The notes beneath the pieces were generated by a model. That model saw only the letters and a program-made list of their open reading frames with translations. It had not been told where the DNA came from and did no database searches. The translations under genes were made by a program, and so were the position numbers. A DNA stretch of 22,460 nt from a virus: positions 1 through 22,460 of IMG/VR virus record IMGVR_UViG_3300027754_000473. One strand, given 5' to 3'. How positions within the stretch are numbered: position 1 is the first letter of the stretch; each line of letters begins with the position of its first letter. Below, piece by piece: positions 3,706-22,460 of the stretch.

Positions 3706-6702
3706 TTAGAAACTTGGAATAAATCCAGTTGCATCTGAACTTAATGTTCCTCCTACTCTAGTAATAGTAATTCTATTAATGAATTTTTGAATTCCTCTAG
3801 GGAAATCTACTCTAATATCAATTACTGCTGAATTAGCCGAAATAACTTCTGTTGTATTATTTGAAGAATCAAAGATAACTTCGAATGTAGCAAGACCTTT
3901 AGCGTTAACTACTGCATTTAAGTAATTTTCAACAATTGTTCTTACTCTTAATCTTGTGATCTCATCATTAAAATCAAATAAGAAATTAAATAAGATTTTT
4001 TCAATATCTCTTTCAATCGTAGATAAGTTATCTCTAACGTGTGCATTGTTAAGTGCTGAGTTAATTCTCTGGTATGCAGTATTATTAGAAAATAATATAA
4101 TTCCAAATCCTCTACGTTTAACAGTTAAGTTAAATCCAACTGGCTCTAAATAATCTCTATCATCATCAGTAAGATCATATTCTAATCCAACTATTTCTGG
4201 ATCACTAAGAGCTCCACGTTTTCCACCTGCCACAATTAAGAATGGTGTACCATTTTTAAATTTTCTAACATATAAGTTAGAAATATATGCTGCTTGAGGT
4301 ACTGATATATTTTTACTTCCGCTTCTTACAATTAAGTTAGGGAAATGGTAAGAAGAGTATGATGATAATGGAACTCCTTTAACATCTTCTTCTGCAAATT
4401 TATATAAGAAACTTGGATTTAAATCTAAATTACCACCTTGTGAAATTAAATTCATAGAAACTAATTTATTAGTGCTATCGATAAAGCTAGGATCAACTGA
4501 TCTTTCAAATTGTTGAACCGATGGTGCATTTAATAATGCCATAGCTTGACCATTTACTGCAGCTAATTTAGCTAATTGATATTTAGAAGATGAAGAAATT
4601 GTACCAGAATAAGTATCAACTACGTATCTAAAATCAATTAATTCACCGTTTGAAAGAGCTTGTGGGATTAAAGTATCTGTAAAAAGATAATCAAGTATTC
4701 CGCCAGTTCCTTCTAAACGTTCTGCTGTTCCATCAGGTAAAGATTCAACTCTTAATTTAAAAGCTTTTAAATTTTGACCTTTTATATTTGTAACAAAATT
4801 TGATATTCCTTTGTATACCTTTAACTCATTTCCAGCAACATCTAATCCAGTAACTTCCTCAACCGTTGGAGCCATAGTAGTTATAACATACGTATTCAAT
4901 ATAGGTAATTTTGTAACTGGATCAATTGCTGATTTAACAGATACTATTCTTAATAATCTATCTCTAGTTAATTGTTGTCCATAATTAGGTGATAATATAT
5001 CATTATCTAAAGCAATATTTGCTTTAATATAATTATTAACTTTAATATATTCGTCAAGAATAGATTTATTTAAAGGATTATACTCTAATGTTAATACATT
5101 CGGTTGAGCAATAGAATAACTTGTAAAAAAGTTAGTATCAGTTAAGTCAAAAGTATATTTAAACTCATCTCCTGAACCTAATACTATTTTTACGTAATCA
5201 TTACTATCTGCTCCAAGATAATTATTTGCATTTATTGGAGTAGTTAATCCAATATTTGCATAAACATTAATTCTAATATATTTAATACCAGCATTTGTTA
5301 AAGTGTCAACTACTTTAATATAATAAGTATTAGTTGCATTTTTAATTAAATCACCAGTTTTTAAGAATCCATTCATGTATGCATCATACATAGCATTTCC
5401 TTCCATTGCAACTAGATAATTAACTGTTCCTGCAACAATATATAATTCATCCATTGCAATTGCATTTCCTCCAATTGTTCCAGCTAAAAATAAAGCCTCA
5501 GTATCTGCTCCAGCTGCTACGAAAATTAATTCAGAATCTGCAGGTTTACTATAACTTAATGTATCGATTAATGGTGTTGGATCAACAATAGTTACTCCAT
5601 CAACATCATATCCTCCATCATCAGCAGAATTATCAAGATCTTCAAATCCATGTCCTACTGTATCAATTCTATGCGAATGTACATCAGTATCTGTAAAACT
5701 ATTTATTGTAAAATCAATTAAATCTAATTTCTCAGTATCTAATGCACATAATATTCCAGTAGTAGGGAAAGCTTTATTTACTAATCTATCGACTGATACA
5801 GTAACTCCACTTTGATCTCTGAAATCAGGAATTAAGCATCCAATTGTACGATTAATTACTTTAACTTCTCTTAATGCAAAGAAATCTGCTGATTTTGCTG
5901 TTTTTAATCCAGCTTCATCAAAAAATTGTTTGTATATAGGATCCTTAGATAATTTTAAATAATTTGTCCATTCTCCACTAATTGCAATAACTTCTACAAA
6001 ATAATCTGAAATAAAATCATCTTGGTGAACATATTCTGGAAATTCAACTGATCCTCCAGCACTTGCGTACCATTCTTTTGCAGTTACATCAAATCCAGAT
6101 ACATTTGCTTTTCTTACCCATATTGTAGTATTAGATTGACCTACATTTACAAATGAAAGAATTTTATTAGACTCAGCATTAGTTATACCGAAACCTCCAG
6201 GAGAAGTAATATAATCATCACCTAATCCTAAATTTTTAGATTTATTTAGTTTATCTGATTCAGCAAACCATAATCTCTGTCTATTGAAGAATTCAGTGAT
6301 TGGCCATTCATGATTAGTTGAACTACCATTATTTTTTGCTGCAGATTCAGTATTAAATGTAGTAAATACTGCTCTGTCTAAATTAGTAGTAGGATCAGTT
6401 ATATCAGTATCCAATGGAATTACATTCATTGCAAATACTGGTCCTTCTCTAAGTGCTACTTCAATTGATCTATGGAAGTAACTTCCTGCTTTTTCAAGTT
6501 TAGTATCAATTTCTCCAAATACTGCTTTTAATGTTCTTAAGTCATTAATTAATACTACTGTATTAAATGGACCTACTCTGCTTGATCCTACGATCAAACG
6601 ACCGGTAGTAAGAGGTAAAACAACATTCTCACTAGCATCAATTTCAACTGTATAAACACCACTAGACTTATAATTATTTAGGTTTATCCTTGGTTCAGCC
6701 AT
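3706..6702 (-). CDS. 18: Contractile tail sheath protein, T4 gp18-like
   Basis: This subunit forms the contractile sheath around the tail tube and drives DNA injection. The N-terminus (residues about 8-97) has the sheath pattern: GVYTVEIDASENVVLPLTTGR, GSSRVGPFNTVVLINDLRTL and AVFGEID, followed by the SYFHRSIEVALREGPVFAMNVIPL segment. The C-terminal domain (about 780-998) has AGGKRGALSDPEI, YLEPVGFNLTVKRRGFGIILFSNNTAYQ, then RDIEKILFNFLFDFND and a final strand FINRITITRVGG, as expected for the conserved gp18 core. At 998 residues it is far longer than T4 gp18 (659); the extra sequence (roughly 110-640) is Thr/Asn/Asp-rich and presumably forms surface-exposed domains. The start codon is ATG at 6702, with only a weak AGAG upstream. 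Confidence 0.88.
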   Translation of the reverse strand: MAEPRINLNNYKSSGVYTVEIDASENVVLPLTTGRLIVGSSRVGPFNTVVLINDLRTLKAVFGEIDTKLEKAGSYFHRSIEVALREGPVFAMNVIPLDTDITDPTTNLDRAVFTTFNTESAAKNNGSSTNHEWPITEFFNRQRLWFAESDKLNKSKNLGLGDDYITSPGGFGITNAESNKILSFVNVGQSNTTIWVRKANVSGFDVTAKEWYASAGGSVEFPEYVHQDDFISDYFVEVIAISGEWTNYLKLSKDPIYKQFFDEAGLKTAKSADFFALREVKVINRTIGCLIPDFRDQSGVTVSVDRLVNKAFPTTGILCALDTEKLDLIDFTINSFTDTDVHSHRIDTVGHGFEDLDNSADDGGYDVDGVTIVDPTPLIDTLSYSKPADSELIFVAAGADTEALFLAGTIGGNAIAMDELYIVAGTVNYLVAMEGNAMYDAYMNGFLKTGDLIKNATNTYYIKVVDTLTNAGIKYIRINVYANIGLTTPINANNYLGADSNDYVKIVLGSGDEFKYTFDLTDTNFFTSYSIAQPNVLTLEYNPLNKSILDEYIKVNNYIKANIALDNDILSPNYGQQLTRDRLLRIVSVKSAIDPVTKLPILNTYVITTMAPTVEEVTGLDVAGNELKVYKGISNFVTNIKGQNLKAFKLRVESLPDGTAERLEGTGGILDYLFTDTLIPQALSNGELIDFRYVVDTYSGTISSSSKYQLAKLAAVNGQAMALLNAPSVQQFERSVDPSFIDSTNKLVSMNLISQGGNLDLNPSFLYKFAEEDVKGVPLSSYSSYHFPNLIVRSGSKNISVPQAAYISNLYVRKFKNGTPFLIVAGGKRGALSDPEIVGLEYDLTDDDRDYLEPVGFNLTVKRRGFGIILFSNNTAYQRINSALNNAHVRDNLSTIERDIEKILFNFLFDFNDEITRLRVRTIVENYLNAVVNAKGLATFEVIFDSSNNTTEVISANSAVIDIRVDFPRGIQKFINRITITRVGGTLSSDATGFIPSF

Positions 6703-7298: not shown

Positions 7299-7529
7299 AT
7301 GGATAACATTACCCCAAGTGACAATCAACCTAAATTAAATATTAACTTATCAGATGCTCCTTATCTTGAATGTGAAGCATGCGAAGGAAGAATATTTGAA
7401 GAAAAAATGATGATTAAGAAAGTTTCAAAGTTTATGACTGGGTCAGATCAAGATTCAATAGTTCCTGTTCCAGTAATAGCTTGTTCAGCATGTGGAAATA
7501 TTAACGACTTATTTAAACCGAAAGTATGA
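7299..7529 (+). CDS. Small zinc-ribbon protein of unknown function
   Basis: The 76-residue protein has two CxxC pairs, CEAC (28-31) and CSAC (62-65), about 30 residues apart, which should bind one zinc ion in a ribbon fold. The stretch between them (KKVSKFMTGSDQDSIVPVPV) is well ordered and not low-complexity, and the sequence ends IACSACGNINDLFKPKV. It overlaps the polymerase start in an ATGA arrangement (7526-7529), so the two are probably translated together and may act together. I know no assigned function for this small phage family; a nucleic-acid or protein-docking role for the polymerase is only a guess. Confidence 0.72.
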   Translation: MDNITPSDNQPKLNINLSDAPYLECEACEGRIFEEKMMIKKVSKFMTGSDQDSIVPVPVIACSACGNINDLFKPKV

Positions 7530-8947
7530 TAATTGGAGCAGAAGTATTTAATGACAATACACTAGTTATTTCATATTATGAAGCTAGTGGAAAGATTGGA
7601 TTTATTAAAAAGAGACTAGCTGATCATGAAATGTATAATTGGGTAGAGTCACAAACTCCGACTGCTACTAAAAATTGGAATGGTAAGTTTGTAAAGAAAG
7701 GCCAGTCTCAAGGACAATACATGAATCAGTTTAGAGTTCAAGAATTAATTCAAGAGAAGCTTACTGCAGAAGAATTAGAATTAGTTTATAGTTTTGATAA
7801 TCTTCCTAAGAAAGTCTATTTGGATATTGAGATTAAATTAATTGACGACTCTTTTCCTGAAGCAGATAAAGCTAGAATGCCTGTTGGACTTATTTCTTTC
7901 TGTAATGAAGAAAATGTAACATATATTCTTTCTATTTTAAATACGGATGATCAGCCTGATGGACTTACCTCAGATCAAATTGTTCAGATGGAAAAGGATG
8001 TAAATGCATACTTTAGAAAAACTGTTCCTAAGCGACCTGAAGATTCTAAACTATTCAATCAAGATTTTAAAATAAAATACAAGTTCTTTAAAAGTGAAGA
8101 TGAGCTAATGGCTTTTTACTTTCATAAAACTATGCCAACTTTTAATTTTGTAACTGGTTGGAATGTAACTGAATTTGACTGGAAGTATTTAATGAATAGA
8201 GGCAAGAACCTTAAAATTGATATGATGCAAGAAATGCCATCTAGATCAACTGTTTCTAAAGTTAAAATACCTACTCATTTAGGTGTACTCGATTATATGC
8301 AAGTTTTTGAAAAAATGAAACCATATAAAGTTGTAGAAAACTATAAACTTGATTATATTGCAGATATTGTATTAGGTACTGCTAAATTGCATCATGACTA
8401 TGCATCATTTATGGAATTTCAAAAAGACGTATACTTGTTTACCATGTATAACGTAATTGATGTTATCTTAGTAAAATTAATTGAAGATAAGCTTGCGCTA
8501 TTGGATGTTGCCTTTGCAATGGCAAATGTTGCACAAGTAGATGTAAATAAAGTATTTAGTCCAGTATATATTGCTGAGATCTTAATGTGTCGTGAATTCC
8601 TAAATAAGAATCAAAAAATGATGAAGCTTCCTTGGGGAGAAGAAGTTATGGATGGTACCTATGCTGGAGCCTATGTAAAAGATCCAATTCCAGGATATTA
8701 TAACGCTATTGCATGTTATGATTTCTCTTCAATGTATCCAAATATCCAAATTCAATTTAATATTTCTCCAGATACTTATCTTGGTAAAACAGATAAAGTA
8801 AAGAAGGATGGTACTGAAATACATACAAAAAATGATACTATGTTCTCAAGCAAAGGAGATTCAGTTGCTCGAACAATACTTACTAGATTATATGACGCTC
8901 GTATAAAAACACAAGGTGAAATTAAACAAATTAAAAATTCAAAATAA
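7526..8947 (+). CDS. 43A: Family B DNA polymerase, N-terminal half only (gp43A-like)
   Basis: This is the exonuclease-bearing half of a T4 gp43-type replicative polymerase. The 473 residues show the N-terminal domain, the 3'-5' proofreading exonuclease with Exo I VYLDIEI (D100, E102), Exo II GWNVTEFDWKYL (211-222, D218) and Exo III YNVIDVILV (Y308, D312), then the start of the palm with motif A DFSSMYPN (399-406, D399). It ends after RLYDARIKTQGEIKQIKNSK, at the base of the fingers. Motif B (Kx3NSxYG) and motif C (YGDTDS) are missing, and T4 gp43 is 898 residues long. No frame downstream to 9283 restores them. The catalytic C-terminal half must be encoded elsewhere as a separate polypeptide, as in some Aeromonas T4-like phages with split gene 43. 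Confidence 0.9.
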   Translation: MIIGAEVFNDNTLVISYYEASGKIGFIKKRLADHEMYNWVESQTPTATKNWNGKFVKKGQSQGQYMNQFRVQELIQEKLTAEELELVYSFDNLPKKVYLDIEIKLIDDSFPEADKARMPVGLISFCNEENVTYILSILNTDDQPDGLTSDQIVQMEKDVNAYFRKTVPKRPEDSKLFNQDFKIKYKFFKSEDELMAFYFHKTMPTFNFVTGWNVTEFDWKYLMNRGKNLKIDMMQEMPSRSTVSKVKIPTHLGVLDYMQVFEKMKPYKVVENYKLDYIADIVLGTAKLHHDYASFMEFQKDVYLFTMYNVIDVILVKLIEDKLALLDVAFAMANVAQVDVNKVFSPVYIAEILMCREFLNKNQKMMKLPWGEEVMDGTYAGAYVKDPIPGYYNAIACYDFSSMYPNIQIQFNISPDTYLGKTDKVKKDGTEIHTKNDTMFSSKGDSVARTILTRLYDARIKTQGEIKQIKNSK

Positions 8948-8958
8948 ACCCAAATAAT

Positions 8959-9267
8959 ATGACAACAACTGAAGATTTCGTAAACTGGCTAGAGGGATTT
9001 CTAGATGCATGTAAAGATGCTCCAACTACTAGACAAATTAAAGAAGTTAGAAAGAAACTAAGTACAGTACAACAATTGACTGAAGAACAATATCAATCTC
9101 TTTGGGATCCATCAATGGCTCCACAGTCAGCCAAAGCATTTTCTACAATAACTTTAGTACAAGCACAAAAAGATGCAGCTCACACAAAAAATCCACAAAA
9201 TGAAGATTTTATCCGTGCTATTGAAGAAGGTAAAAATGCTACAACGATGGAAGAGCTTAATTCCTAA
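8959..9267 (+). CDS. Unknown protein directly after the polymerase fragment
   Basis: The 102-residue protein looks wholly helical, with EDFVNWLEGFLDACK (5-19), a basic turn RQIKEVRKKLS (about 25-35) and EEQYQSLWDPSM (42-53), and ends with an acidic EEGKNATTMEELNS. It has no polymerase motif, so it is not the missing half of the neighbouring enzyme. It starts 11 bases after the polymerase stop behind an AT-only leader, and the next gene follows 16 bases later. I do not recognise the family. Confidence 0.72.
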   Translation: MTTTEDFVNWLEGFLDACKDAPTTRQIKEVRKKLSTVQQLTEEQYQSLWDPSMAPQSAKAFSTITLVQAQKDAAHTKNPQNEDFIRAIEEGKNATTMEELNS

Positions 9268-17162: not shown

Positions 17163-20100
17163 TTAAGCTTGAATAAAACCTATTCCTCCATATTCTGATC
17201 TATGATCTAAAAAATCCATTTTATTTCCTTCTAATTCTGACCATAATTGATCTACTCTACAATTAGCACCTCTATGGAATTCAGTATCCTTAGTATCATG
17301 AAATCCAATCCATCCTCCAGGTTTTACTAAGTGTCTATACATTTCATAATCCTGTTTTACTCCTTCGTAAGTATGATCGCCATCAATAAATAAGAAGTCT
17401 AATAAGTCTCCATTTAATATAGATTCAACTTCTTCTAACATTGTGTATTCATGTGATGAACCCCATAACATAGTTACATTTGAACCTAATGATTTAAGAT
17501 ATTCATCTCTTTCATATTCATTATAATCAGCTCTACCGAATTGTCCATGTGGCATATCGACAGATATTCTAATTCCATCATTTGATAATTTACTCCAGAT
17601 TGCAAAAGATCCTCCTTGATCAGTACCAATTTCCATAAAATTAGTTACATTTAACTCTTTAAAGAATTTAGCAGCTTCAAATATTTCTTTATGGTTTTGA
17701 ACCATTCCTAAATCATATGATTCTTGAACAATTACTTCTACTGATTTTTCAGCATATCCTAATTCATGATATCTTTCAATTTCTTTAATTACATCACCTG
17801 CAGATATTATACTTGTACATTCAAATTGGCGACGAGTTCCTTTTTGATCTGGGCACCAATTCCAATCACCTGCATCTAATCTATGTCGATTAAAACATCC
17901 ATTACATCCTCCTCCTTTAAATACTCTAATTACATTAGTATCAAATATCTCAGTTGAAGGTAAACTAAAGCCAGAAATTAAAACAGTTGGTGTTCCTACT
18001 GCCCATGATAACCAACTTAATCCTGACCCGACTCCTATAAACATTTCACTATGTTTTAAGTGAAGAATAACATTTGCAAGTGTATCTGGACCCTGTTTTC
18101 TAATTGCTCCATTAGGATAATTATTTTGCATATATCCATCTTCTTCAAGCCCTATAATAATTACCTTTAATCCATTGTCTAAAAAATAATTAGTTAATTC
18201 TTGCCAGCCAGTTGGATTATTCCAATATTTTGCTTGTGCAGTTGCATGCATTGCGATACATACATATTTTCCATCTATTGGCGAATTTCCAACCGGAATT
18301 GTTAAATTAGGTTTAACTGTCGAATGAGGTAATCCTAATATATCACATGTAGTAGATTGCATTGGAAGTTTTCTAAAATCATTACAGTGATATTCACTAT
18401 TTATTGTTCCATCACCATTATAAAACCAACCAATTTTATATTGTGCATATAAACCATGAACTATTTCTCCAGGTTGAACGAATGTTATATTAGAATAATT
18501 ATCTCTAAATAATTCATTTTTAAAAGTACTTACTATTACTTCACAATTATGTTTCTTTCTAAATTCTTCAATTTGTGGAAACCATGCAAGAGAATCACCT
18601 AATGCACTTGATTCAAGTGAAATTAAAACTCTTTTTTCAGTAAGATCAATATCTTCTTCATATACTTCCATAGTATCTAAATTAGTTATTTTAACTTTCC
18701 AATCTACGAAATATTTAATATTACTTCTAACCCAGCAATTAATACCGATTATATTTGAATAAAGAATTGAATTACTTTCACCATCGATTAATTCTATTAA
18801 GAATCTACTGTCACTCTGTCCAGTAATCTCAACAAATGCACCATTAATAAAATTAATATTATAATTAATTGTTTCTAGTCTAGTTTCTAATTCTAGTTCT
18901 CTAATGTAATTTGGATTTGATATCATACACGTTGCTTTTTTAGTTGAATTAGTATATTCTTTTTTTATTTTTAAATTAGGAAAGTCTATTGAGAATCCAT
19001 CATTCAGTAAATATTGAGGTATCTTATATGCAATAATTTCACGAGGTGCAAGAAGAGATTCAATAGATTTATCTTGATATTTGATGAGATAAAAAATAGA
19101 TTCACTCTCTGCACCAACTAAACATAAGTAGTTTTCCCCAGCTTGATTTTGTGCAAGATATACAAAACCGTCTCCGCCAGACTTAGTTGTTAATTGAGGA
19201 TATGTTGAAAGAATAAAACTATTAATAATATTTTTCTTTTTAATAGATTCAATATTATTTACCTCTATATCTAGTCCATATGAATCACATGCAGCAAAAA
19301 GCACATCTTCTAATATTACTTTACCTTCATATGCAAAATAACTTGCTTTAGTCGTAAATTGAGCAAGCGCAGAACTTAACATTCCTACATTTGCTGAAAA
19401 GAATGCTGAATTTATTGAACCTTCTCCATTCCATGAATAAGCAATCATATCGTGTTCTATCAATTCAATATGATGCGATTTTAATAATTCAGTATCATCT
19501 ATAATATAATCATAATTTATAAAATGAGCAGTTGAACAATTATTAGCTTTTGCAATACCTAATCCATTTTTAATAAGTTTCATTGCTGCGAATCCATGAT
19601 TAAAATCAAATGAATATGATAAATCAAAATCAGCATATCGAATATAGTGAATTGGTACAGTATTTGAAAAAGTGTGATATTCATCTGGATAAACTACTGG
19701 ATTATCTCTATCAAATACTACATAATCAGCTATTTCATAGAATTCTGCAGGTACTTCAATATGCGATGAGATAATTACAAGTAAACCTTGATTTTTTAAA
19801 GTAATTACTGATCTTCTTAATAGAGACAATTTTTCTTCAGTATCTGCATGCGACATTATAATTGCTGCCTCATCTTTTCGACTAACTTTAAGATCAAGCG
19901 AAATAACCTTTTTTAGTTCTTCAAATCCTTCGTGTCCAACTTTTTCCCAGTTAAATTCCTGGTAAATAAGATCAGCTTCTTCTCTAGCTAATTTCTTCTT
20001 TTCTCCCCAATTCTCAAAGCAGTCAATTAATACTTCTTTAAGATTTTCGAAATCAGGTTCAGCATATACACCTGGAGTATTTCCAGCAAAACCTAGATCT

Positions 20101-21062
20101 GCTCCGATATTTGCAGGTAATTCATTTACTATTTTTACAGGATTTCCTTTTCCTCCAGCAAATTCAAGTTGTGCTCCCCAATTAGAATAAATTACAGGTG
20201 TTCCTGCAACCATTGCTTCAATTAATGGAATATTCCAGCCTTCACTACGTGCACAACTTATTAAGACATGTCCATTTTTAAGATAGTCTTCATATTCTTC
20301 TCTATTTAGAAAATGTTTAACCTTAATTTGATCATCAATTAGATCATAGTGAGCAAGTCTCTCTTCAGTAGACTTTAATCCATCTATTGAATATGGATTA
20401 TCCGCACTTAATATTAATTCAACTTCATCATTATCTGGAAATGCTTCTAGAAATGCTTTAACTATTTCAGGCACAGATTTACGATAGTCCCATCTTCCAA
20501 AAAACATAAATTCAAAACTTTCTCTAGCTTTTCTACTTTCTGGTTTAAAATATAATGATTCACCAACTCCTTCGTGTACTACAAATACTCTATGTTCAGG
20601 ATATCCTTGCTTAATTACTACCTCTTTATGCCATTCAGTTACAACCCATAAATAATCAAATTTTAATAATTGATTAAAGAAATCTTCAGGTAATTCAGTA
20701 CTTTCCCAAACAGTATATGCAATTTTAACCTTGGCAGAATACTCTTCATAGAAATAATAGTGATTCATATCCATTAAGACAATATCAATATCCTGCTTAA
20801 AATTTGATAATTCAGTATTTTTCCAGGGATAATTCGGAAGGCCTTTAGTAATACTATAATCTAAATCCTTTTCTCCATCCTTTAAAGTAATCGTATCAAT
20901 TATTCGATAATCTATATCATTTAAGTAATTTGGATCGATATCCCAAGTATAGTTTCTTACTCTTAGATCTACATGCTTTGATAATTCTCTAAAAAAGGAT
21001 CTTGCGTGTGCTGCATATCCAGTTTTTCCTAAATAGCACGTATGAGCTCTTACTTTTAACAT
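17163..21062 (-). CDS. Multi-domain glycosyltransferase (GT4 + GT-A-like + GT9/TibC-like) fused to a methyltransferase
   Basis: The 1299-residue protein has four parts. Residues 1-385 form a GT4-type glycosyltransferase: MLKVRAHTCYLGKTGYAAHARSF, FFGRWDYRKSV (187-197) and SEGWNIPLIEAM with the E-x7-E pair (E274, E282). Residues 396-625 look like a GT-A-like domain (LLVIISSHIEVP, HFINYDYIIDD). A beta-rich stretch (690-808) leads to 811-1098, a GT9-like domain of the autotransporter heptosyltransferase (Aah/TibC) type: RVLISLESSALGDSLAWFPQ, CIAMHATAQAKYWNNPTGWQ, FIGVGSGLSWLSWAVGTPTVLISGF and four cysteines (C1053, C1056, C1070, C1082) that match the iron-binding set known in TibC. Residues 1120-1299 form a class I SAM methyltransferase (FMEIGTDQGGS, DFLFIDGDHTYEGVKQDY, LVKPGGWIGFHD). 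It lies downstream of the tail fibre gene. Substrates are unknown. Confidence 0.85.
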   Translation of the reverse strand: MLKVRAHTCYLGKTGYAAHARSFFRELSKHVDLRVRNYTWDIDPNYLNDIDYRIIDTITLKDGEKDLDYSITKGLPNYPWKNTELSNFKQDIDIVLMDMNHYYFYEEYSAKVKIAYTVWESTELPEDFFNQLLKFDYLWVVTEWHKEVVIKQGYPEHRVFVVHEGVGESLYFKPESRKARESFEFMFFGRWDYRKSVPEIVKAFLEAFPDNDEVELILSADNPYSIDGLKSTEERLAHYDLIDDQIKVKHFLNREEYEDYLKNGHVLISCARSEGWNIPLIEAMVAGTPVIYSNWGAQLEFAGGKGNPVKIVNELPANIGADLGFAGNTPGVYAEPDFENLKEVLIDCFENWGEKKKLAREEADLIYQEFNWEKVGHEGFEELKKVISLDLKVSRKDEAAIIMSHADTEEKLSLLRRSVITLKNQGLLVIISSHIEVPAEFYEIADYVVFDRDNPVVYPDEYHTFSNTVPIHYIRYADFDLSYSFDFNHGFAAMKLIKNGLGIAKANNCSTAHFINYDYIIDDTELLKSHHIELIEHDMIAYSWNGEGSINSAFFSANVGMLSSALAQFTTKASYFAYEGKVILEDVLFAACDSYGLDIEVNNIESIKKKNIINSFILSTYPQLTTKSGGDGFVYLAQNQAGENYLCLVGAESESIFYLIKYQDKSIESLLAPREIIAYKIPQYLLNDGFSIDFPNLKIKKEYTNSTKKATCMISNPNYIRELELETRLETINYNINFINGAFVEITGQSDSRFLIELIDGESNSILYSNIIGINCWVRSNIKYFVDWKVKITNLDTMEVYEEDIDLTEKRVLISLESSALGDSLAWFPQIEEFRKKHNCEVIVSTFKNELFRDNYSNITFVQPGEIVHGLYAQYKIGWFYNGDGTINSEYHCNDFRKLPMQSTTCDILGLPHSTVKPNLTIPVGNSPIDGKYVCIAMHATAQAKYWNNPTGWQELTNYFLDNGLKVIIIGLEEDGYMQNNYPNGAIRKQGPDTLANVILHLKHSEMFIGVGSGLSWLSWAVGTPTVLISGFSLPSTEIFDTNVIRVFKGGGCNGCFNRHRLDAGDWNWCPDQKGTRRQFECTSIISAGDVIKEIERYHELGYAEKSVEVIVQESYDLGMVQNHKEIFEAAKFFKELNVTNFMEIGTDQGGSFAIWSKLSNDGIRISVDMPHGQFGRADYNEYERDEYLKSLGSNVTMLWGSSHEYTMLEEVESILNGDLLDFLFIDGDHTYEGVKQDYEMYRHLVKPGGWIGFHDTKDTEFHRGANCRVDQLWSELEGNKMDFLDHRSEYGGIGFIQA

Positions 21063-21124: not shown

Positions 21125-22460
21125 TTATAAACTATTCTTTAGATCTTCGAGTGAATCCGCCGTTTTAATCTTATTGATTAAATGTTGCAGTGCACCAAAT
21201 AATGTTTTATATAATTGATCTGCATTCAACGAATGAAAATCTTCGAATCCATGTTCTGCACTATATGATACTGCCTTTGGAAATACTTCCTTTACTTCTT
21301 GTGCAATAAATCCAATCGCATTTCTATCATCTACTTCTGGATAATAATTTTCATCCCACGTAAACCGCTTTAATGATATTCCAGTAACTATATCGTAACA
21401 TGTTTGAAGATTTGCAGGTTCAATATTCGTCTTTACTCGAGCATCTGACCCAGTTAACCAAGTAGTACTCGTTAATTTTCTTGCACCATCTGTTGATAAA
21501 TCTAATTGATATGCTGGAGATGCTGTACCTAGTCCTATTCTAGAAGTTGTTCCATCAAATAATGCAATAACTCCATTTTTTCCATTATAGATACCAGTAG
21601 TTCTAAATTGAGTCGTTCCAGTGTTATATCCTCTATAATTAATATATAATTGATCTGCTGCATTCCCAGAATTTAACCATATCTCATTACTGTTTCCTAT
21701 TGCAATCGGACCGATTATATTAACATTGCCTACAAAATTAGCCGATACTTCTATTTTACCTAATGCAAACAAATTACCTGTAGTTGATTCAATTGTTACT
21801 AGATTTTGTTCTACTGCTGATAAAATTGTTCCTCTAAAATTAAATCCTCTATTTGAAGTATCTGTACTAAAATTAACACCGTCGTCATTTATTCCAACAG
21901 ATAGAGTATAACCTGAAGTACTTGTTCCAGTAGTTAATTTAATTCCTTGATTTCCATTTATTATATGTAATTTAGCTGTAGGTACAGTTGTCCCTATTCC
22001 AACATTGCCACTCGCATGAACAATAGACATCTTTTCTCCCCAAGCAGTTCCACTATATCCCCATATTGTAAACTTACCAACTCCTTGTTGTAATGAAGTA
22101 TAAGATGAGCCAGACCCTCCTACAAAATAAATATTTGCTCCTGCTTGGATTGTATCACTTGGTCCTGATAATAATCTTAATGATGGATCAGAATATGTAA
22201 AATTAGCTTCTCCTTGAATAGTATTAGCTAGGCCAGTTGCAGTAAGTACATAATTATCTACATTACTATTAATTGTTATGCTTGATCCACTAGAACCCGA
22301 CGTGCCTGAACTGCCTGAACTACCTGATGTACCGCTAAGTCCACTAGAACCAGATGTACCACTAGATCCACTTGTTCCACTAAGTCCACTAGAGCCTGAT
22401 GTACCACTAAGTCCACTTGTTCCACTAGATCCACTTGTTCCACTAGAGCCAGAAGTACCT
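21125..22460 (-). CDS. Tail fibre protein with collagen-like repeats and S74 intramolecular chaperone (5' end missing)
   Basis: The frame is open from the right edge (22459) to the stop at 21125, giving the last 444 residues; the methionine at 22030 is internal. The visible N-terminal part is a run of about 19 Gly-X-Ser triplets (GTS, GSS, GLS), then SITINSNVDNYVL and a fibre shaft. Head-like repeats VGIGTTVPTAKLHI and IGLGTASPAYQLDL follow. The end is a peptidase S74 (endosialidase-type) chaperone beginning WLTGSDARVKTNI, with the Ser and Lys five residues apart as in the endosialidase autocleavage dyad, and including AIGFIAQEVKEVFPKAV and the helical end LYKTLFGALQHLINKI. The chaperone directs trimerisation and is then cut off. 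It probably recognises host surface glycans or proteins. Confidence 0.87.
   Translation of the reverse strand, partial: GTSGSSGTSGSSGTSGLSGTSGSSGLSGTSGSSGTSGSSGLSGTSGSSGSSGTSGSSGSSITINSNVDNYVLTATGLANTIQGEANFTYSDPSLRLLSGPSDTIQAGANIYFVGGSGSSYTSLQQGVGKFTIWGYSGTAWGEKMSIVHASGNVGIGTTVPTAKLHIINGNQGIKLTTGTSTSGYTLSVGINDDGVNFSTDTSNRGFNFRGTILSAVEQNLVTIESTTGNLFALGKIEVSANFVGNVNIIGPIAIGNSNEIWLNSGNAADQLYINYRGYNTGTTQFRTTGIYNGKNGVIALFDGTTSRIGLGTASPAYQLDLSTDGARKLTSTTWLTGSDARVKTNIEPANLQTCYDIVTGISLKRFTWDENYYPEVDDRNAIGFIAQEVKEVFPKAVSYSAEHGFEDFHSLNADQLYKTLFGALQHLINKIKTADSLEDLKNSL
22286..22460 (-). repeat. Gly-X-Ser tandem codon repeats in the fibre gene
   Basis: Nine-base units encoding Gly-(Thr/Ser/Leu)-Ser are repeated without a break, in mixed order and with varying third codon positions (GGA/GGT/GGC, AGT/TCT/TCA). 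They continue past the window edge. The protein would form a collagen-like trimeric rod with one or two hydroxyl side chains in every triplet. The repeat region is likely to vary in length by recombination. Confidence 0.9.

What the first reader, a model, noticed from the sequence alone, without database searches (positions are those of the whole stretch)
7526..8947. DNA polymerase split after motif A, with the catalytic C-terminal half missing from this locus
Seen: the frame carries Exo I, II and III and motif A (DFSSMYPN) and ends cleanly after residue 473, followed by a normally spaced unrelated gene. No motif B or YGDTDS occurs in the next 330 bases in any plus frame. Known: family B polymerases need all three palm and finger motifs, and a few Aeromonas T4-like phages have gene 43 split into 43A and 43B. 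Inference: the rest is a separate gene elsewhere and the two chains assemble. The zinc-ribbon gene coupled at 7526 could be a partner of the split enzyme.
Basis: partly seen in the sequence, partly recalled or inferred. Interest (0 to 1): 0.75.

Follow-up and report, generated by a model that had tools for sequence, protein, structure and literature searches.

The report
Phage DNA polymerase encoded in halves
This virus fragment carries only the first half of a T4-type DNA-copying enzyme; in close relatives the second half is a separate gene tens of thousands of bases away, and the break lies at the tip of the enzyme's 'fingers', where at least three phage lineages appear to have broken the same enzyme.

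Summary
Frame 7526-8947 (473 aa) is the exonuclease, motif A and first finger helix of a T4/RB69-type family B polymerase; nothing else polymerase-like is in the 22.5-kb record. It is not an assembly error: all 47 complete relatives found (27-100% identical) stop at the same place. The missing half exists: long relatives (N-half 74-90% identical) carry a separate 477-478-aa gene with motif B (NSIYG) and motif C (YTDTDS), 52-67 kb downstream, beside a primase gene. Models of the two chains map onto RB69 gp43 residues 4-496 and 546-900, so only the fingertip is absent. Each chain holds one catalytic aspartate, so the C-half is not 'the catalytic half'. The same split runs through a wide clade including Lak, PAU, PTm1, pT24, MA9V and other huge phages, and arose separately in Aeromonas phages (43A/43B, published as co-purifying and active) and cyanophage S-CREM2. 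Assembly of this pair is inferred, not shown, and the window's own C-half lies outside its contig. The zinc-ribbon gene is confined to the closest relatives and is not a required partner. Verdict: a genome-dispersed, clade-wide variant of a known kind.

The parts
7526..8947 (+). N-half of a T4-type family B DNA polymerase: N-terminal domain, 3'-5' exonuclease, motif A part of the palm, first finger helix (473 aa)
   Evidence: Pfam/PHROG matches; AF2 model pLDDT 84.9 aligned to RB69 gp43 4-496, Z 28.9
7814..7840 (+). Exo I (D100, E102)
   Evidence: invariant in alignment A2
8144..8191 (+). Exo II (GWN...D218)
   Evidence: invariant in alignment A2
8435..8473 (+). Exo III (Y308...D312)
   Evidence: invariant in alignment A2
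8720..8743 (+). Motif A DFSSMYPN (D399, equivalent of RB69 D411)
   Evidence: alignment; D399, S402, Y404, P405 invariant
8864..8944 (+). First finger helix (residues 447-473), ends at the fingertip; R459 aligns with RB69 R482
   Evidence: AF2 helix 447-472; residue 473 aligned to RB69 496
8945..8959 (+). Split point: TAA stop, 11-nt gap, ATG of the next gene; no room for an intron, no intein sequence, no RNA-family match
   Evidence: position conserved in all complete relatives
7299..7529 (+). Zinc-ribbon ORF (76 aa, CxxC...CxxC), overlapping the polymerase start by 4 nt; subgroup-specific neighbour, not a required partner
   Evidence: upstream ORF found in 29 of 30 close loci, the other cut by its contig end; absent beside L176-L192
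8959..9267 (+). Unrelated 102-aa downstream gene; the slot holds different genes in relatives

Best explanation
The ORF is the N-terminal subunit of a two-chain T4-type (gp43-like) replicative DNA polymerase. The second chain, encoded tens of kb downstream beside the primase gene in close relatives, carries motif B, motif C, the rest of the palm and the thumb. The break falls at the fingertip, between the two antiparallel finger helices, where intact polymerases vary in length and no catalytic residue sits. The chains most likely associate non-covalently after translation, rebuilding the finger hairpin and the palm. One catalytic aspartate (D399) and one triphosphate-binding arginine (R459) come from the N-chain; the second aspartate (D99 of YTDTDS) and the motif B Lys/Asn (K19, N23) come from the C-chain. 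Each chain alone should therefore be unable to polymerise, while the N-chain alone may keep exonuclease activity. SHOWN: anatomy, conservation, presence and complementarity of the C-half in relatives, several independent occurrences of the split. INFERRED: physical assembly and activity of this pair, presence of the C-half in the window's own genome, the residue roles (from RB69 gp43).
For: Profile phrog_262 is covered 60-497 by the N gene and 496-841 by the C gene in the same records. 24 records carry both halves as separate genes (21 in the window's clade plus Aeromonas 44RR and 25 and S-CREM2). The C-halves keep the motif B and motif C residues. N-model aligns to RB69 4-496 (Z 28.9), C-model residues 1-372 to RB69 546-900 (Z 19.7). 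In both separately predicted chains the palm parts that face the partner have pLDDT below 50 (N 370-403; C 29-47, 159-176, 195-203), while the thumb is near or above 90. dN/dS about 0.03-0.07 for the N-half against near relatives; 0.02-0.03 for N and for C between two of them. Six long relatives have no family A or PolIII-alpha match as an alternative replicase. Aeromonas 43A and 43B, split at the same position, co-purify and have polymerase activity (PMC2988022). N and C contigs occur in the same metagenome in at least a dozen cases, e.g. 3300042940, which holds an N-half 99.8% identical to the window's and a C-half.
Against: The window's own C-half was not seen. No complex was modelled or tested. 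Low model confidence in the palm may only reflect shallow alignments. C-halves of the window's subgroup have an extra C-terminal ~105 residues (373-478) of unknown role.
Confidence: 0.9

Rival explanations
1. The N-half works alone as an exonuclease (or is a relic) and another polymerase copies the genome.
For: The exonuclease domain is complete and models well. Some relatives also carry a separate PolB-type exonuclease, PF10108.
Against: Motif A and finger R459, useless to an exonuclease, are invariant or nearly so. The complementary C-half is present in the long relatives. No PolA or PolIII-alpha match in six of them.
Confidence: 0.04
2. The halves are joined covalently by trans-splicing, at protein level (split intein) or RNA level.
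For: C-halves of some relatives do carry inteins, some fractured around an endonuclease, at motif C.
Against: Neither the N-half end nor the C-half start carries intein sequence; the N-half stop is followed by the next gene within about 0-12 nt; no RNA family at the junction. The C-half starts at its own ATG.
Confidence: 0.03
3. Assembly error or frameshift in a normal full-length gene.
For: None found.
Against: Same end in 47 complete relatives from many independent assemblies; no C-half within the flanks held around any of the close N-halves; cultured phages PAU, PTm1, pT24 and MA9V-2 show the same split.
Confidence: 0.01
4. The zinc-ribbon protein (7299-7529) is a third subunit that helps the halves assemble.
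For: Upstream ORF with 4-nt overlap in nearly all of the window's close relatives.
Against: No such ORF beside the N-half in L176-L192, which are split in the same way; no family match. Not exclusive with the main explanation.
Confidence: 0.08

Closest known systems
Aeromonas phage 44RR2.8t / phage 25 gp43A + gp43B
   Same: T4-type PolB cut at the same profile position (497 of phrog_262); the two chains of phage 25 co-purify and are active (PMC2988022)
   Different: Genes 43A and 43B are close together; a separate origin, branching with T4. In the window's subgroup the halves lie 52-67 kb apart and the split is clade-wide
Jumbo phages PAU, PTm1, pT24, MA9V-1/2, Prevotella Lak phages, LR7565xx huge phages
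   Same: Same clade, same split site; both chains annotated 'DNA polymerase' in several records
   Different: The window's lineage is a distinct branch (N-half about 25-33% identical to those), with its C-half beside the primase gene
Synechococcus phage S-CREM2 'DNA polymerase subunit A / subunit B'
   Same: Cut at the fingertip (4-499 / 497-853)
   Different: Independent event inside intact cyanophage polymerases; halves separated by one small gene
Rhodothermus phage RM378 split polymerase
   Same: T4-related phage with exonuclease and polymerase on separate genes
   Different: Cut between exonuclease and palm (111-336 / 379-726), not at the fingertip
RB69 / T4 gp43
   Same: Best sequence and structural match of both halves
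   Different: Single chain
PHROG families 2062 (502 aa) and 1918 (382 aa)
   Same: Already hold N-half and C-half polymerases as separate families
   Different: Annotated only as 'DNA polymerase'

Membership tests
T4 gp43-type family B DNA polymerase (as a two-chain enzyme) | Exo I, II, III | tested here: met
   invariant D100/E102, D218, Y308/D312
T4 gp43-type family B DNA polymerase (as a two-chain enzyme) | Motif A (Dx2SLYP-type) | tested here: met
   DFSSMYPN, D399
T4 gp43-type family B DNA polymerase (as a two-chain enzyme) | Motif B (KxxxNSxYG) and motif C (DTDS) encoded in the same genome | tested here: met
   in relatives with 74-90% N-half identity; not seen in the window's own fragment
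T4 gp43-type family B DNA polymerase (as a two-chain enzyme) | Fold of RB69/T4 gp43 | tested here: met
   Z 28.9 and 19.7, complementary ranges
T4 gp43-type family B DNA polymerase (as a two-chain enzyme) | Templated DNA synthesis by the assembled enzyme | not testable with these tools
   needs protein chemistry
Aeromonas-type gp43A/gp43B split | Cut at the fingertip (phrog_262 position ~497) | tested here: met
Aeromonas-type gp43A/gp43B split | Common origin of the split | tested here: not met
   44RR branches with T4, far from the window's clade
Aeromonas-type gp43A/gp43B split | Halves close together, around a homing endonuclease or untranslated insert | tested here: not met
   halves 52-67 kb apart in the nearest relatives; 11-nt junction to the next gene
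RM378-type split | Cut between exonuclease and palm | tested here: not met
Split-intein fractured gene | Intein fragments at the two broken ends | tested here: not met
   N-half end and C-half start are plain finger helix
Methanothermobacter-type split archaeal PolB | Same break point | not tested
   known from memory only; no sequence compared

The most novel reading that the evidence does not exclude
An entire old clade of T4-like phages, reaching the largest known phages, replicates with an obligate heterodimeric PolB whose fingers close between two chains. The fingertip is a recurrent break site used by at least three lineages, and the separate genes let the phage set N-chain and C-chain levels independently (for example free N-chain as a nuclease or regulator).
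Probability: 0.2. Interest if true: 0.72.

Novelty: new variant of a known kind. Interest (0 to 1): 0.5.

Why it matters
It shows that a replicative polymerase can be carried as two separately encoded chains across a large group of phages, with the active site shared between the chains. Repeated breakage at the fingertip points to one tolerant hinge in the family B fold. In practice, databases and pipelines that demand a full-length polymerase will call these phages polymerase-less or count the halves as two genes.

Tried and rejected
Looked for the C-half in the window's own record: none (the record is a 22.5-kb fragment). A complex of the two chains could not be modelled with the tool (single chains only). 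Homing-endonuclease or intron at the junction: no RNA family match, no intein ends. Alternative replicases: no PolA or PolIII-alpha match in six long relatives. Whether the split arose only once in the clade could not be settled: Flavobacterium phage MaF61 has an intact polymerase on a long branch at or near its base (support for the 20 split rows alone 78/28; a quick tree without five long or divergent rows gave four changes of state, but one clade was not rejected, p-AU 0.40; MaF61 with PAU and MA9V-2 was not rejected either, p-AU 0.17). The first attempts at the concatenated tree failed on scripting errors. No paper in the held library was found that describes this clade-wide split; the PTm1 genome paper itself was not found there.

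Full report
WHAT IS THERE. The window is a complete 22,460-base virus record, a fragment of a genome, with T4-like genes: gp32-type SSB, RNase H-type exonuclease, GroES, tail sheath, UvsX, DnaB-type helicase, and SbcD/SbcC-type nuclease subunits. ORF 7526-8947 encodes 473 residues with Exo I-III, motif A and the start of the fingers. Pfam assigns the PolB exonuclease domain and only positions 35-143 of 453 of the polymerase domain; PHROGs assigns phrog_262 positions 65-488 of 856 and phrog_2062, a 502-residue polymerase family. The next gene starts 11 nt after the stop. No other PolB match exists in the record.

NOT AN ARTEFACT. Thirty loci with 69-100% identity and eighteen more, mostly distant (L175-L192, 27-77%), were examined. 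Every complete frame (47; L030 is cut by its contig end) stops about 74-103 residues after motif A, whereas the intact cyanophage-type polymerases recovered in the same search reach motif B about 115 residues after motif A and continue. None of the N-half loci has a C-half within the flanks held, up to 10 kb, and none of 55 C-half loci has an N-half within 6 kb. Selection on the N-half is strongly purifying: dN/dS about 0.03-0.07 against four close relatives by Nei-Gojobori counts, with dS near saturation.

THE OTHER HALF. In the long relatives the same record encodes the complement. Records G002, G003 and G001 (176, 125 and 207 kb; N-half 90, 90 and 74% identical to the window) carry N and C matches to phrog_262 at about 60-497 and 496-841, 52-67 kb apart. 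The C gene reads MEDKEKHIKKLDLKQNAIKILINSIYGAFGNKW...YTDTDSIYV and overlaps a primase gene. A scan of the viral contigs with it found 55 C-half loci. In all, 24 records hold both halves: G001-G003, G019, G022, G023, G024, G025, G028, G030, G031, G032, G035, Lak-A2, LR756500, LR756501, LR756504, MA9V-2, PAU, PTm1 and pT24 (21, the window's clade; PTm1 and pT24 were not put on the tree and are placed here by their kinship to PAU and MA9V), and Aeromonas 44RR, Aeromonas 25 and S-CREM2 (separate origins). In the window's clade the C gene lies downstream of the N gene on the same strand in 18 of 21 records; the other three (LR756501, LR756504, Lak-A2, all over 540 kb) have them on opposite strands and far apart. 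That order suggests breakage in place followed by growth of the DNA between the halves; this is inference. In MA9V-2 the intervening genes include a TnpB-type nuclease.

WHERE THE CUT LIES. The N-half model (pLDDT 84.9) aligns over its whole length to RB69 gp43 residues 4-496 (Z 28.9, rmsd 4.6, 409 aligned), and the C-half model (pLDDT 71.6) aligns over residues 1-372 to 546-900 (Z 19.7, rmsd 6.9, 333 aligned). The 49 residues between are the fingertip, which varies in intact enzymes: motif A to motif B is 113 residues in cyanophage Sf-CH11, 153 in T4, 174 in Aeh1 and 164 in MaF61; the window's subgroup totals 75 + 22 = 97. The cut removes no known catalytic residue and distributes the active site: D399 and R459 on one chain, K19, N23, D97 and D99 on the other. 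Residue roles are from established knowledge of RB69 gp43. When the chains are modelled alone, the palm segments that should meet are the uncertain ones (N 370-403; C 29-47, 159-176, 195-203, all below pLDDT 50) while exonuclease and thumb are confident; this fits mutual dependence but may also reflect shallow alignments.

HISTORY. In the N-region tree 38 split sequences form one group (100/94) apart from the intact ones, and the Aeromonas split sits beside T4. In the N+C tree the split state needs three changes: the window's clade, 44RR, and S-CREM2 inside the cyanophages. The intact polymerase of Flavobacterium phage MaF61 joins the window's clade (100/100 with it) on a long branch; whether it is a pre-split sister or a re-fusion is unresolved. 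Cultured members infect Bacteroidota (Chryseobacterium, Tenacibaculum; MaF61 Flavobacterium), and Lak is assigned to Prevotella; PAU's record names Sphingomonas.

MECHANISM. Most likely the two chains fold together without covalent joining. The published precedent is Aeromonas phage 25: 43A and 43B co-purify and possess DNA polymerase activity (PMC2988022), and the cut is at the same profile position. Covalent joining is unlikely: no intein or intron sequence at either broken end. The zinc-ribbon ORF overlaps the N-half start in nearly all near relatives but is absent beside the N-half of L176-L192, which are split the same way, so it is not a general partner.

NOVELTY. Split T4-type polymerases are known, several genome records already list two 'DNA polymerase' genes, and PHROGs holds the halves as separate families. 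The MA9V-1 paper lists both ORFs in its gene table without remarking on a split in the passages read (PMC10537231), and a term search of the S-CREM2 paper found no mention of a split (PMC10665884). The jumbo-phage survey discusses a split PolIII alpha, not this (PMC7824862). What I did not find described is the clade-wide, genome-dispersed form and the repeated use of the fingertip. I therefore file it as a new variant of a known kind.

Noticed in passing
L119:6001-7893; L099:4042-7131; L102:4032-7140: The C-half of some relatives carries an intein at motif C (YTDTD/S): an in-frame mini-intein in L119 (PF14890, E 4e-15) and intein halves separated by an endonuclease-like ORF in L099 and L102, so the enzyme there is encoded in three pieces. 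Lak-A2 looks the same, and PTm1 is annotated 'intein-containing split DNA polymerase precursor'.
   Followed up: partly
L281:3953-6937: Flavobacterium phage MaF61 has an intact 994-aa polymerase at or near the base of the split clade: a pre-split sister or a re-fusion.
   Followed up: partly
L282:3830-6773: Cyanophage S-CREM2 has an independent fingertip split, annotated subunits A and B, separated by one 98-aa ORF.
   Followed up: yes
L073-L077, L276-L279: Several relatives carry a separate ~245-aa PolB-type 3'-5' exonuclease (PF10108) elsewhere in the genome.
   Followed up: partly
L084:7117-7434 (C-half residues 373-478): C-halves of the window's subgroup have an extra ~105-residue C-terminal extension with no aligned part in RB69 or T4 gp43.
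   Followed up: no
8959-9267 in the window and the same slot in L002-L031: The gene just after the N-half differs between close relatives (MTTTEDFVNWLEG-type or MAKPIxxV-type), a variable slot at the old break point.
   Followed up: no
window 3706-6702 and 17163-21062: Long tail sheath (998 aa) and a 1299-aa glycosyltransferase-like protein on the minus strand.
   Followed up: no
window 21125-22459: Minus-strand ORF, open at the record end, with GTSGSSGTSG-type collagen-like repeats and a tail-fibre-like C-terminus.
   Followed up: no
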